From positions 124,001 through 188,000 of the forward strand of contig NZ_JEOE01000002.1 of the NCBI RefSeq assembly GCF_000708885.1: 64,000 bases of DNA. The letters are read 5' to 3'. The notes beneath the pieces were generated by a model. It saw nothing but the letters and a program-made list of their open reading frames with translations. It did not search any database and was not told the origin of the DNA. This DNA is from Cellulomonas sp. HZM (GTDB taxonomy: Bacteria > Actinomycetota > Actinomycetes > Actinomycetales > Cellulomonadaceae). The first letter of the stretch is position 1. Each line of letters opens with the position of its first letter. This document shows, one piece after another, positions 15,771-41,836 of the stretch. The position numbers were made by a program, and so were the translations under genes.

Positions 15771-17705
15771 TCACTCCCCCAGCACGGGCTTGAGCTCCTC
15801 GATGTGCCACCGGCGCCGCTCGCGCACGACGAGCACGCCGGCGGCCACGGCCACCACCAGGAACCCGAGCACGACGACGACGTCGCGCCAGAACCGGCCG
15901 TCGGGACCGCCGGTCATCGCGATCCGCAGGCCGTCGACCACGTAGGTCATCGGCAGCACCGGGTGGATCGCCTGGAAGAAGCCCGGCAACGTCTGCACGG
16001 GGTAGATCCCCGCGCAGCTGGTGAGCTGCAGCATCAGCAGCGCGAGCGCGATCGACGACCCGACGACGCCGAACGCGGTGCGCAGCGTGTGCGCCACCGC
16101 GGTGAACGCGAGCGACGCGAGCACGACGAGCAGCAGCAGGCCGGGCCACGACACCGGGTCCAGGCCGAGCGCGAGCGCGATCACCGCCGTGAGCACGAGC
16201 GCGCCCGCGACCCCGATCGCCGCGACCGGCAGGAAGCCCGCGAGCGCGACGGTCACGGATCGCGCGCGTGACGCGAGCCCTCGCGGGTTCACCGGACGCA
16301 GCACGGTGAACGCGACCACGCCGAACACGCACAGCGCGATCCCGAAGAAGAACGGGGCGAGCCCCGCACCGTACGTCGCGGCCTGATGGACGCCGCGCTG
16401 CTCGATGAGCGACGGCGAGGAGATGGACTGGGCCGTCGCGTCGGGGTCGGTCACGGACGGCACCTTCGTCGCGGCGCTCGACAGCTTGTCCGCCAGCTCG
16501 CCGGCGCCGTCGTGCAGCTTCTGCGTGCCGGTCGCCAGGTCGTCGGCCCCGTCCTGCGCCTTCGCGAGCGCCGGCGTGAGCTTCGCCAGGCCGTCGGCGA
16601 CGTCACGTGAGCCGGTCGCGAGCCGATCGATGTCCGCCTGCGCCCCTCGGATCTTCGACTGGATCGCCGGCACCTTCGCGTCGACCGCCTTCGCGCGCGA
16701 GTGCACGGTCCCCGCCGCGCTCGCGACGTCCTTCGTCGCGTCGACGACGTCGTCGGCTCGCGCGTCGGCCTGCTTCGCCGTCTTGAGCGCACGCACGTAG
16801 GCCGGGTCGTCTGCGAGCTCGGGGTGCGCCTTGGCGAGCGCCGTCAGGTCGTCGACGGTCGCCGACGTCCGGCCCGCGAGGCCGTCCGAGCCCGAGGCGA
16901 CGGCATCGGTGAGGTCGGCGACCGCGCCGGTGAGGTCGTCGGCAGCGTCCGCGACGCCCGGCAGCGCCGGGACGATCTCGTCGACGAGCGGGTCGACGAC
17001 CGCGGCGATGCGCTCGTCGCCGTCCGCCACCTGGTCCGCGCCGTCGGTGAGCTTGCCGCTCGCGGTCACCGCGTCGCCCAGCCCGTCGGACAGCTTCTCG
17101 GCCCCGTCGTGTGCCTTCGTCGCGCCGTCCGCGAGCTGCGTCGCGCCGTCCGCCGCCTGCTCCAGGCCGTCGCGCAGGTCGTCGAGCTGCCCGAACGCGA
17201 CCCGCAGGTACGCCGCCGTCGCCGCCTGGTTGATGCGTTCCTGCAGCTCGAGCGCCGCCCCCCTGCTCGCGACCGACACGACGAAGCCGTTGGCGCCGTC
17301 GCGAGCGAGGATCACGTGCGCCTGCTGCGGGTCCTTCCCGGCGACCGACGCGAGCGACGCGGAGAACTCGCGCGGGATCGTGAGCGTCATCAGGTACGTG
17401 CCGTCGGCCAGGCCGCTCGCGGCATCCGCGGCGTCGGTCGTCGTCCAGTCGACCACCGGTTCGGCCTCGAGCTGTTCGACCATCTCGTCACCCGCGGCGA
17501 CGCGCTCGCCCTGCTCGGTCACGGGCTCGTCCTCGTTGACGACCGCGACCTTGATCGAGCCGACCTTCGAGTACGGGTCCCAGTTGGACCAGAGGTACAG
17601 GCCGCCGTACAGCGTCGGGACGATCACGAGGAACGCGATCGCCGCGCGCTCGAGCGGCCGTCGGTAGCGGCGCAGCTCGCTCCACGCGAGCGCCAGCGCG
17701 CTCAC
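15771..17705 (-). CDS. YhgE/Pip domain membrane protein
   Basis: 644 aa. One N-terminal membrane helix (IAFLVIVPTLYGGLYLW, about residues 20-40) is followed by a large extracytoplasmic region rich in DGA/AxxL heptads (DGATQLADGATKAHDG), then five C-terminal helices of the ABC-2 permease type. This is the YhgE/Pip architecture, related to phage-infection protein Pip and the ESX/type VII-linked YueB; members act in export or as phage receptors. Start GTG 17705 overlaps the stop of the ATPase gene (GTGA), so the two form an ABC-like pair. Confidence 0.88.
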   Translation of the reverse strand: MSALALAWSELRRYRRPLERAAIAFLVIVPTLYGGLYLWSNWDPYSKVGSIKVAVVNEDEPVTEQGERVAAGDEMVEQLEAEPVVDWTTTDAADAASGLADGTYLMTLTIPREFSASLASVAGKDPQQAHVILARDGANGFVVSVASRGAALELQERINQAATAAYLRVAFGQLDDLRDGLEQAADGATQLADGATKAHDGAEKLSDGLGDAVTASGKLTDGADQVADGDERIAAVVDPLVDEIVPALPGVADAADDLTGAVADLTDAVASGSDGLAGRTSATVDDLTALAKAHPELADDPAYVRALKTAKQADARADDVVDATKDVASAAGTVHSRAKAVDAKVPAIQSKIRGAQADIDRLATGSRDVADGLAKLTPALAKAQDGADDLATGTQKLHDGAGELADKLSSAATKVPSVTDPDATAQSISSPSLIEQRGVHQAATYGAGLAPFFFGIALCVFGVVAFTVLRPVNPRGLASRARSVTVALAGFLPVAAIGVAGALVLTAVIALALGLDPVSWPGLLLLVVLASLAFTAVAHTLRTAFGVVGSSIALALLMLQLTSCAGIYPVQTLPGFFQAIHPVLPMTYVVDGLRIAMTGGPDGRFWRDVVVVLGFLVVAVAAGVLVVRERRRWHIEELKPVLGE

Positions 17706-18544
17706 GACGCGTCCCGCACGTGCTCGGCCGGCGTACGTGGGAGCTCGACGACCCTCGTCGCGCTGCCGCTCTCCCTGCTGGTCGTCGCGAGCACCGCGAC
17801 ACCTGTCGCTGCGATCGCGGCGAGGGTCTCGCCCGCGGCGCGCAGCTCGTCGGCCCGGAGCCCGCGGTCGAGGTCGTCGACCACGAGCACCTCGTGCGGT
17901 GCGAGCAACGCGAGCGCGAGGGCCAGGCGGACCTGGTCGAGACGGCCCAGGTGCTCGACCATCGTGGAACGCGGCGCGTCGAGGCCGACGAGCCGCGCGG
18001 CCTCGTCGAACGCGAGCGGAGCACCGTTGCCGTCCGTGGGCCGCCCGCGCTCCCAGCGTGAGCGTTCTCTCGCGGACTCCCCGACCGTGAGCCACTCCTG
18101 CGGCTCTACCTGCGGCAGCACGCGGGCCACCGAGGTCCGCGCGCGCACGGACCGCGCCGCACCGGCGCCCGCCCGCGCGTGGCTCAGCTCCGCACCCAGC
18201 ACCCGCAGCGAACCCGCGGTGAATCGTGCGCGTCCGACGAGCGCCAGGAGCAGCATCGACCGTCCCGTCCCACCGCTGCCGACGAGCTCGACGGACTCCC
18301 CCGGGTCGACGTCGAGGTCGACGTGCCGGAACACCCAACCCGTACGGAGTCGCAGGCCGAGCCCGCGCGCGACGACCACGGGCGCCGACGCGACGTCGTC
18401 GGGCTCGTCGGGCTCGTCGGGCTCGTCCTGCTCGCCGACCGCTGCGTCGTCCTCGACGGCCGGGCCCTCCGTCCGGTCGCCGGCCCACGGCTCGTCCGGT
18501 GCATCGTCTACCGACGGTGCGGCGATCTCGGCGGGGTCGGTCAC
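17702..18544 (-). CDS. Degenerate ABC-type ATP-binding protein paired with YhgE/Pip
   Basis: 280 aa. ABC ATPase fold, but key motifs are altered. The Walker A region reads GSGGTGRS (about residues 89-96), with Arg for the invariant Lys. The signature LSGGQ is replaced by LGRLDQ. Walker B ends VLVVDDLDRG, with Asp rather than Glu as catalytic carboxylate. The N-terminus is acidic with a DEPDEPDEPDD repeat. GTG 18544 has GGAGG 5 nt upstream; ATG 18583 has no ribosome site. Coupled to the YhgE/Pip gene. It may bind but not hydrolyse ATP. Confidence 0.8.
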   Translation of the reverse strand: MTDPAEIAAPSVDDAPDEPWAGDRTEGPAVEDDAAVGEQDEPDEPDEPDDVASAPVVVARGLGLRLRTGWVFRHVDLDVDPGESVELVGSGGTGRSMLLLALVGRARFTAGSLRVLGAELSHARAGAGAARSVRARTSVARVLPQVEPQEWLTVGESARERSRWERGRPTDGNGAPLAFDEAARLVGLDAPRSTMVEHLGRLDQVRLALALALLAPHEVLVVDDLDRGLRADELRAAGETLAAIAATGVAVLATTSRESGSATRVVELPRTPAEHVRDAS

Positions 18545-18710
18545 GGGGTCCTCCACGGGCGTCGACGACGGTGCTCCCAGCATGGTCGACCGATGCGGTC
18601 GCCGCACCGTGCCTACCTGCTACCCGCTGCTACCCGCGTGCCCGCCGGGACCCAGCGACACCCCGCGCGGTCGCACCCATCCGACGAGCGCGCGGCTCCG
18701 AACCCCGCGC

Positions 18711-19007
18711 ATGACGATCCCGCCCTGGCTCTCGAGCCGCGAGCTCGTGATCCTCTCCCACCTGGCCCTGCCGCTGACGCTCGAGCAGATCGGCGCCTCG
18801 CTGTTCGTGTCGCGCAACACCGTGAAGACCCAGGTGCGGTCGATCTACGCGAAGCTCGGCGTGAGCGACCGTGCGAGCGCGGTGCGCCGGGCCCACGACC
18901 TCGGCCTGCTGCCGGTGAGCGAGCTGCCAGCGCGCGACGCCCCCGAGGTGCCGTTGCCGCACGCCCCGTGGACGGGAGCCCGCAGACCTCCGCGGTACCT
19001 GTCGTGA
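18711..19007 (+). CDS. Small LuxR-type helix-turn-helix protein
   Basis: 98 aa. Almost the whole protein is a GerE/LuxR DNA-binding domain: LSSRELVILSHLALPLTLEQ, IGASLFVSRNTVKTQVRSIY, AKLGVSDRASAVRRA. No receiver, sensor or ATPase domain is seen. It could be a stand-alone regulator or the surviving C-terminus of a larger LuxR protein. The ATG at 18711 lacks a clear ribosome site, and an in-frame GTG at 18609 is possible but would add Pro/Cys-rich sequence unlike a protein domain. Confidence 0.7.
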   Translation: MTIPPWLSSRELVILSHLALPLTLEQIGASLFVSRNTVKTQVRSIYAKLGVSDRASAVRRAHDLGLLPVSELPARDAPEVPLPHAPWTGARRPPRYLS

Positions 19008-41709: not shown

Positions 41710-41777
41710 GGGTCGATCCTCCCATGACACCGCACCGTGTCCCGCACCGTGTCCCGCATCGTCGAGCGCGCAGCACA

Positions 41778-41817
41778 CACGAAGGCCCGGTGACGTCGAC
41801 GTCACCGGGCCTTCGTG
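41778..41817. terminator. Perfect 40-bp palindrome, terminator of bldC
   Basis: 20-bp arms meeting without a loop (41778-41797 with 41798-41817), downstream of the bldC stop at 41837 and upstream of def. The RNA hairpin would need a few opened pairs at its tip. Its CGAAGGCCCG arm resembles the fabF terminator. Confidence 0.75.
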
Positions 41818-41836
41818 ATCGGGTACTGCTGCGGGG

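What the first reader, a model, noticed from the sequence alone, without database searches (positions are those of the whole stretch)
17702..18544. ABC ATPase with Walker A Lys to Arg and lost signature, coupled to YhgE/Pip
The sequence reads GSGGTGRS where GxxGxGKS/T is expected, LGRLDQ in place of LSGGQ, and DD in place of the catalytic DE. All three ATP-hydrolysis elements are altered but the fold and the GTGA coupling to the permease are kept. Together they suggest selection for a non-hydrolysing or regulatory partner of the Pip exporter.
Basis: seen in the sequence. Interest (0 to 1): 0.5.

Follow-up and report, generated by a model that had tools for sequence, protein, structure and literature searches.

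The report
Dead ATPase paired with Pip permease
Beside a bacterial membrane protein built like an ATP-driven pump sits an engine subunit that has lost the parts needed to burn ATP, and the same broken but preserved engine turns up beside this membrane protein in many actinomycetes, which suggests that the pump-like protein does not run on ATP in the usual way.

Summary
The gene lies on the minus strand (18544..17702) and overlaps a YhgE/Pip permease gene by 4 bases. Walker A reads GSGGTGRS, the signature LGRLDQ, Walker B VLVVDD; the H-loop His is missing too. It is not local decay: its 7 same-genus orthologues show the same losses. A class-level census started from the permease (110 Pip genes) found an NBD-like ORF just upstream of 103. 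In the 76 clear ones the Lys position is R 62, K 9, Q 5; signature GG 0, H-loop His 0, catalytic Glu 1. Twenty NBDs not next to Pip, read the same way, have Lys 19, Glu 20, GG 12, His 10 (6 unread). The gene is under purifying selection and predicted as a complete NBD fold; the Pip core is predicted ABCG-like (ABC-2, type V). P-loop glycines, Arg/Lys, Ser/Thr and an acidic D-[D/N]-x-[D/E] cluster are among the most conserved columns; signature GG and H-loop His columns drift. Best reading: a family-wide pseudo-ATPase, probably nucleotide-binding but not hydrolysing, docked on an ABC-2-type permease that works without ordinary ATP turnover. Hydrolysis, binding, docking and transport are untested.

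The parts
17702..18544 (-). pseudo-NBD gene (280 aa from GTG at 18544; in-frame starts also at 18583 and 18607)
   Evidence: ORF; GGAGG-N5-GTG read; PF00005 46 bits; AF2 model of the core (17705-18382) pLDDT 92.6, pTM 0.90
18257..18280 (-). Walker A, GSGGTGRS; Arg codon CGG at 18260-18262 in place of the Lys codon
   Evidence: read; Arg also in 7 of 7 same-genus orthologues
17933..17950 (-). signature position, LGRLDQ in place of LSGGQ
   Evidence: read; GG in 0 of 76 clear Pip-linked relatives
17873..17890 (-). Walker B VLVVDD, Asp at the catalytic Glu position; start of the family's D-[D/N]-x-[D/E] cluster
   Evidence: read; Glu in 1 of 76; conservation ranks
17774..17800 (-). H-loop region VAVLATTSR, no His
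   Evidence: read; His in 0 of 76 clear relatives
17702..17705 (-). GTGA stop/start overlap between NBD and Pip genes
   Evidence: GTGA or ATGA at the same junction in the window and all 7 orthologous loci
15771..17705 (-). YhgE/Pip permease gene, 644 aa, ABC-2-type membrane core (residues about 443-633)
   Evidence: TIGR03061/TIGR03062, PF12698 88.9 bits, cut-off 31.6; predicted core fits ABCG2 7nez_A, Z 18.7, 189 residues, 2.4 A
18395..18427 (-). acidic low-complexity stretch DEPDEPDEPDD before the NBD core
   Evidence: read; coordinates counted by hand

Best explanation
The gene encodes the partner subunit of an ABC-2-type (type V, ABCG-like) YhgE/Pip permease. It is an ABC nucleotide-binding domain that keeps its fold, its phosphate-binding loop and an acidic cluster but has lost the signature, catalytic Glu, H-loop His and Q-loop Gln, and in most members the Walker A Lys. 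I propose that it docks on the cytoplasmic face of a Pip dimer where an active ATPase would sit, probably with a nucleotide bound in the P-loop, and stabilises or gates the permease without hydrolysing ATP; any transport by Pip then uses another energy source or none. Shown: motif loss, family-wide conservation, linkage to Pip, purifying selection. Predicted by computation: both folds. Inferred: complex formation, nucleotide binding, absence of hydrolysis, gating.
For: Motifs and overlap. Same genus: the NBD and its Pip type occur in the same 8 of 60 genomes, all 8 with Arg, Asp for Glu and no signature or His. Class level, started from Pip: 103 of 110 Pip genes have an NBD-like ORF just upstream; among 76 clear ones R 62/K 9/Q 5, GG 0, Glu 1, His 0; in the 27 weak ones GG 0, Glu 0, His 0. 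Controls, 20 NBDs not next to Pip: Lys 19, Glu 20, GG 12, His 10 with 6 unread. A separate profile built from 20 canonical NBDs hits 88 ORFs near the census Pips; 0 of 88 combine a Lys-type Walker A with a signature-like or DE pattern. Conservation ranks of 207 columns: P-loop Gly 8 and 5, Arg/Lys 12, Ser/Thr 17, Walker B Asp 7, next Asp/Asn 11, Asp/Glu +3 9; signature GG columns 126 and 177, His column 148. dN/dS NBD 0.21-0.30, Pip 0.08-0.20. Model pLDDT 92.6, Z up to 23.4 to ABC NBDs. Because Walker-side and signature parts are lost in the same polypeptide, no composite ATP site would be complete in a homodimer or with a canonical partner (inference from the established architecture of ABC dimers).
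Against: No biochemistry. Lys-bearing members exist (9 of 76; 16 of 104), and one member has Glu (L216), so some could retain weak activity. P-loop conservation would also fit a low-activity or altered enzyme. The Walker B Asp is Gly in 17 of 76 clear members, 16 of them in family group f22, and 26 of 27 weak members lack the P-loop pattern, so nucleotide binding cannot be universal. The NBD-Pip complex was not modelled.
Confidence: 0.6

Rival explanations
1. Pure structural scaffold: the NBD binds no nucleotide and only holds the permease dimer together or protects it; the P-loop is kept because the fold needs it.
For: Decay series in the census: 27 of 110 Pip genes have only a weak NBD-like neighbour (28-100 bits), and 26 of these 27 lack the pattern GxxxxG[KR][ST]; five Pip genes inspected in Bacillota and Deinococcota have no ABC gene beside them.
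Against: In 104 clear members the P-loop Gly, Arg/Lys and Ser/Thr and the acidic cluster rank in the top 17 of 207 columns while signature GG and His columns drift; a scaffold would not need that chemistry.
Confidence: 0.25
2. The NBD still hydrolyses ATP, with Arg and Asp/Asn doing the work of Lys and Glu, perhaps slowly.
For: P-loop and acidic residues conserved; Lys kept in 16 of 104 representatives.
Against: Signature GG and H-loop His absent in 76 of 76 clear members, 2 of them gapped at the His column; the composite site needs the signature (established).
Confidence: 0.1
3. Pip borrows a canonical ATPase encoded elsewhere, and this NBD is the passive half of a heterodimer.
For: Heterodimers with one degenerate site are common (PMC7756269, passages). 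Unlinked ABC genes abound in these genomes.
Against: In the known cases the losses on both subunits fall into one composite site; here one subunit has lost Walker-side and signature parts, so both sites would be defective with any partner (inference). Among the three genes shown on each side of the 7 group A loci, only L039 has another BLAST match to the NBD.
Confidence: 0.08
4. Local decay, pseudogene or sequencing error.
For: NBD dN/dS is higher than that of Pip and of the neighbouring genes in each pair.
Against: Same losses in other genomes, dN/dS well below 1, open frames, intact predicted fold.
Confidence: 0.01

Closest known systems
Degenerate-site ABC exporters (TAP, ABCG5/ABCG8, Pdr5)
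   Same: Loss of catalytic Glu and signature; Walker A Lys to Arg is reported for ABCG5/G8, and Lys to Cys, Glu to Asn and His to Tyr with signature LNVEQ for Pdr5 (PMC7756269, passages).
   Different: Those pair a degenerate with a canonical composite site (passages); here the one NBD gene beside Pip has lost both halves, so a homodimer has no complete site.
RbsA/NupO fused NBDs of Bacillus subtilis
   Same: Second Walker A without Lys and a deviating signature (PMC11466899, passages); a sugar-type NBD (named by eye) with Arg also appeared among our hits (L020).
   Different: Two NBDs fused in one chain, one site degenerate; type II importers, not ABC-2 (same passages).
YhgE/Pip proteins of Bacillota (phage infection protein; EsaA relatives)
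   Same: Same permease family (TIGR03061/03062); the Enterococcus paper calls the domain one without known function and notes the EsaA relation (PMC4999554, passages).
   Different: No ABC gene beside the 5 non-actinomycete Pip genes inspected (8 of 40 plasmid records with a match were opened).
SbmA (SLiPT family)
   Same: A membrane part related to that of ABC transporters that runs on the proton gradient (PMC13316013, abstract in listing).
   Different: Another ABC fold class and no NBD (recalled); whether Pip uses a proton gradient is unknown.
ABCA/ABCG transporters
   Same: The best sequence-profile hit of the NBD family in the PDB is ABCA3, with ABCA4, ABCA7 and ABCA1 and also Rv1281c close behind; the Pip core fits ABCG2.
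   Different: Those are ATP-hydrolysing transporters (recalled).

Membership tests
ABC ATPase domain (PF00005) | profile match above curated cut-off | tested here: met
   46 bits against 25; 74 of 76 aligned family members match at E 0.001
ABC ATPase domain (PF00005) | complete NBD fold | tested here: met
   predicted model pLDDT 92.6; Z 23.4, 199 residues, 2.4 A to 4yer_B
Catalytically active ABC ATPase | Walker A Lys | tested here: not met
   Arg, 18260-18262
Catalytically active ABC ATPase | LSGGQ-type signature | tested here: not met
   LGRLDQ; GG in 0 of 76 clear relatives
Catalytically active ABC ATPase | Walker B Asp | tested here: met
   first D of VLVVDD
Catalytically active ABC ATPase | catalytic Glu after Walker B | tested here: not met
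   Asp; Glu in 1 of 76 clear relatives
Catalytically active ABC ATPase | H-loop His | tested here: not met
   Ser at that column; His in 0 of 76 clear relatives
Catalytically active ABC ATPase | ATP hydrolysis | not testable with these tools
   no biochemistry
YhgE/Pip family | TIGR03061 and TIGR03062 above cut-off | tested here: met
   159.6 over 96.15 and 200.4 over 102.2 bits
ABC-2 / type V exporter | membrane-domain fold | tested here: met
   PF12698 88.9 bits, cut-off 31.6; predicted core Z 18.7, 189 residues, 2.4 A to ABCG2 7nez_A
ABC-2 / type V exporter | NBD encoded with the permease | tested here: met
   GTGA overlap; NBD-like ORF upstream of 103 of 110 Pip genes
ABC-2 / type V exporter | export powered by ATP hydrolysis | not testable with these tools
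   the sequence argues against it
Degenerate-site heterodimeric ABC exporter | one complete composite ATP site | tested here: inconclusive
   Walker-side residues and signature are lost in the same polypeptide, so neither site is complete in a homodimer; a second NBD in trans could not be tested

The most novel reading that the evidence does not exclude
A whole family of actinomycete ABC-2-type systems has turned its motor into a nucleotide-sensing subunit: the P-loop (G-x-G-[R/K]-[S/T]) with a D-[D/N]-x-[D/E] cluster binds a nucleotide or another phosphate ligand and gates Pip, while energy comes from elsewhere; the same route, continued to full loss of the NBD, would give the solitary Pip and EsaA-like proteins of Bacillota.
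Probability: 0.35. Interest if true: 0.8.

Novelty: new variant of a known kind. Interest (0 to 1): 0.6.

Why it matters
ABC transporters with one degenerate site are well known, but a permease class whose adjacent NBD lacks nearly every catalytic motif would be an ABC-2 system that cannot be a conventional ATP-driven pump. It makes the unknown function and energy source of YhgE/Pip (phage receptor, EsaA relative) testable: the actinomycete members offer a natural series from Lys-bearing to Arg, to lost P-loop, to no NBD.

Tried and rejected
Local decay or sequencing error was rejected by orthologues. A biased sample was a concern: the genome-contig scan used peptide patterns that themselves contain the DD motif, so its rows were not used for the census, which starts from Pip. 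In the census 13 Pip places below the curated TIGR03062 cut-off were not fetched; one Pip (L272) was dropped because its start was out of view; one family group (f21) supplies many rows; L204's second Pip may share the first one's NBD. Weak NBD-like neighbours (28-100 bits) rest on a profile built from the family itself. Since a canonical NBD scores only 26-90 bits with it (controls), the weak class could have hidden canonical NBDs, so I read its motifs and searched again with a profile of 20 canonical NBDs: no weak member has GG, Glu or His at the aligned columns, and of 88 ORFs near Pips 9 have a Lys-type Walker A, 9 a DE pattern somewhere in the ORF, 1 a signature-like word, none two of these. 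By eye two weak members (L178, L257) have a His, and one (L248) a GG, one column off the aligned position.

Same phylum but other class or unplaced (17 loci: L174-L177, L182-L194): 1 clear NBD (L174, Lys), 2 weak (L193, which has a His at the H-loop column, and L194), 14 none, of which L190 has almost no upstream sequence in view.

A C-terminal tail of Pip (basic and aromatic, then L-x-P) goes with having an NBD neighbour. A first, strict pattern matched 59 of 95 with and 0 of 12 without; I then relaxed it to L.P in the last 16 residues: 81 of 95 against 0 of 12 (6.5% of background 16-mers). This is post hoc and not corrected for kinship, and the twelve without an NBD include the five Bacillota/Deinococcota genes; Pip ORFs with the C-terminus out of view were left out. 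It is a hint for a docking site only.

The tree (quick method, 104 rows) needs at least 7 changes at the Walker A Lys position; the root is not inferred, so Lys to Arg cannot be told from the reverse. A sigma-70 consensus scan found no promoter. A PDB sequence search with the Pip profile gave coiled-coil and helical-bundle proteins, no transporter (34 hits), and Foldseek on the whole Pip model ranked mostly coiled-coil proteins with a few ABC transporters; the ABCG match comes from the second look at those hits.

Paper searches: (and 96 for SbmA). Their listings showed no paper on a degenerate ATPase beside YhgE/Pip; listings were capped (for 'YhgE' 40 of 71), and subscription journals are mostly missing, so absence from print is not claimed.
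Full report
Observation. The finding's range 17702-18544 holds a minus-strand gene. Its upper limit is a GTG preceded by GGAGG and 5 nt, the likeliest start; longer in-frame starts exist at 18583 and 18607. Motifs: GSGGTGRS (18257-18280), LGRLDQ (17933-17950), VLVVDD (17873-17890), VAVLATTSR without His (17774-17800). It matches PF00005 (46 bits, cut-off 25). The next gene, 17705-15771, is a YhgE/Pip protein; stop and start overlap as GTGA.

Same genus. In 60 genomes of the genus, 8 carry this NBD (own plus 7 at 42-55% identity over the matched stretch). All 8 have G[SA]GGTGRS, Asp at the Glu position, no signature and no H-loop His, and in all 8 the stop overlaps the Pip start by 4 bases (GTGA or ATGA). 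A Pip profile finds this type of Pip (986 bits or more, the next best 848) in exactly the same 8 genomes. A second, paralogous set (group B, 20 loci: L009-L029 without L020) also has Arg, no signature, Asp and no His, and has a Pip match beside it; in the 20-kb neighbourhoods it often lies near a peptide deformylase gene, a TetR gene and a small MerR-type HTH gene (families checked for L048). Of the 30 loci, 28 have a Pip match; the two without, L020 and L030, look like a sugar-type NBD and a type I exporter by eye.

Wider sample. A scan of named genomes with the family alignment gave 80 loci from Cellulomonas, Actinomadura, Microbispora, Streptosporangium, Arthrobacter, Nocardia, Streptomyces and others; 76 of 80 contain a Pip ORF (none in L148, L150, L159, L161). 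That scan used patterns with the DD motif, so it cannot measure how often the motifs are lost.

Census from the permease side. TIGR03062 was found in 99 of 296 genomes of the class (E up to 1e-15). I fetched 94 regions with places above the cut-off and used 13 loci for the rest; 13 listed places below the cut-off were left out. This gave 111 Pip ORFs, one without its start in view. Of 100 Pip ORFs scoring 400 bits or more, 75 have a clear NBD (100 bits or more) just upstream on the same strand, 22 a weak one (28-100 bits), 3 none (L252, L279, L288). Of 10 scoring lower, the numbers are 1, 5 and 4. In the 76 clear NBDs the Walker A Lys position is R 62, K 9, Q 5; the signature GG is present in 0; the Walker B Asp is D 59, G 17; the catalytic position is D 56, N 10, G 5, S 2, E 1 (L216), H 1, Q 1; H-loop His 0 (2 gaps). 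The 9 Lys members also lack GG and have Asp or Asn for Glu. The same pipeline on 20 NBDs not next to a Pip gives Lys 19 and Arg 1, GG 12, Glu 20, His 10 with 6 gaps. Because canonical NBDs score low with the family profile, I also read the 27 weak ones (GG 0, Glu 0, His 0, P-loop pattern 1) and searched with a profile of canonical NBDs: of 88 ORFs near census Pips none combines two of Lys-type Walker A, signature-like word and DE pattern. So the pipeline recognises canonical motifs, and the loss belongs to the Pip-linked family.

Outside the class. Of 17 same-phylum loci 1 has a clear NBD (Lys), 2 a weak one, 14 none, one of these with little sequence in view. Of eight plasmid-borne Pip genes opened (40 records matched), the Rhodococcus and Arthrobacter ones follow a gene annotated as ATP-binding cassette or ABC ATP-binding protein and the Tsukamurella one a hypothetical protein; those of Latilactobacillus, Deinococcus, Roseburia, Lactiplantibacillus and Listeria have no ABC gene beside them (5 of 5). 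The Deinococcus gene is followed by an 'ATP-binding protein' whose part in view holds GAF domains, not an ABC domain.

Selection. Between close relatives dN/dS of the NBD is 0.30, 0.21 and 0.26 in three pairs (the last two share a genome), of Pip 0.08, 0.15 and 0.20, of neighbouring genes 0.01-0.11. The NBD evolves faster than Pip but under clear constraint. In 104 representatives under 72% identity, 207 columns could be ranked by conservation. Two P-loop glycines rank 8 and 5 (the first glycine 29), the Arg/Lys column 12, Ser/Thr 17; Walker B Asp 7, the following Asp/Asn 11, and an Asp/Glu three after the Walker B Asp 9. The signature GG columns rank 126 and 177 and the His column 148, though the signature's leading Leu ranks 28; Gln is rare in every column of the Q-loop region. 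The protein therefore keeps a phosphate-binding site and an acidic cluster and has dropped what completes and fires a composite ABC site. A tree of these rows needs at least 7 changes at the Lys position (R 84, K 16, Q 3, L 1), so the residue has moved more than once.

Structure. The NBD core with 76 rows is predicted at pLDDT 92.6, pTM 0.90 and fits ABC NBDs over about 200 residues (4yer_B Z 23.4, 2.4 A; HrtBA, FtsE, MJ0796). By sequence profile its best solved relatives are ABCA NBDs, with Rv1281c among them. Pip is predicted with lower confidence (pLDDT 79.8, pTM 0.61); residues 443-633 fit the membrane domain of ABCG2 (Z 18.7, 189 residues, 2.4 A). An earlier survey already noted that PIP homologues include putative ABC-2 proteins (PMC3924187, passages).

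Mechanism. In an ABC dimer each ATP site joins the Walker motifs of one NBD to the signature of the other (established). Here Lys, Glu, His and signature are lost in one polypeptide, so a homodimer has no complete site, and pairing with a canonical NBD would leave both sites defective. That separates the system from transporters in which one site is degenerate and the other canonical (PMC7756269, passages). The best reading is a pseudo-ATPase that docks on Pip, probably holds a nucleotide, and stabilises or gates it. Binding, docking and gating are inferred. A Pip C-terminal tail that co-occurs with the NBD (81 of 95 against 0 of 12, after a stricter pattern gave 59 of 95 against 0 of 12) is a possible docking element, found after the fact and not corrected for kinship.

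Novelty. The paper searches showed no description of it in their capped listings, in a library without most subscription journals. Degenerate NBDs are a known kind; a family-wide NBD dead at both halves of its site, beside an ABC-2-type permease and decaying stepwise to absence, is a new variant as far as I could see.

Noticed in passing
window 18711-19007 (+): Small stand-alone LuxR-type HTH gene (PF00196, 98 aa) divergent from the NBD gene; a similar 89-aa gene (PF00196) lies near the same system in L036 8178-8447.
   Followed up: partly
window 41710-41836: A peptide deformylase gene (PF01327) and a small MerR-type HTH gene (BldC by recall) are 127 bases apart here; in several same-genus genomes a second NBD-Pip pair plus a TetR gene lies between such genes, so this genome seems to lack system B at that site.
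   Followed up: partly
window 18395-18427: Low-complexity DEPDEPDEPDD repeat in the N-terminal extension of the NBD protein.
   Followed up: no
L035 7967-9307: Second Pip-like gene of the same genome (70.2 bits with TIGR03062, under the cut-off), next to a TetR gene and with no NBD match among its near neighbours.
   Followed up: no
L289 2977-6451; L296 1-5763: Pip genes of Rhodococcus and of Listeria both have a glutamate decarboxylase gene nearby, possibly an acid-stress link.
   Followed up: no
L282, L284: Tandem Pip genes without an NBD in two same-order genomes (family group f19), of a lower-scoring Pip type.
   Followed up: no
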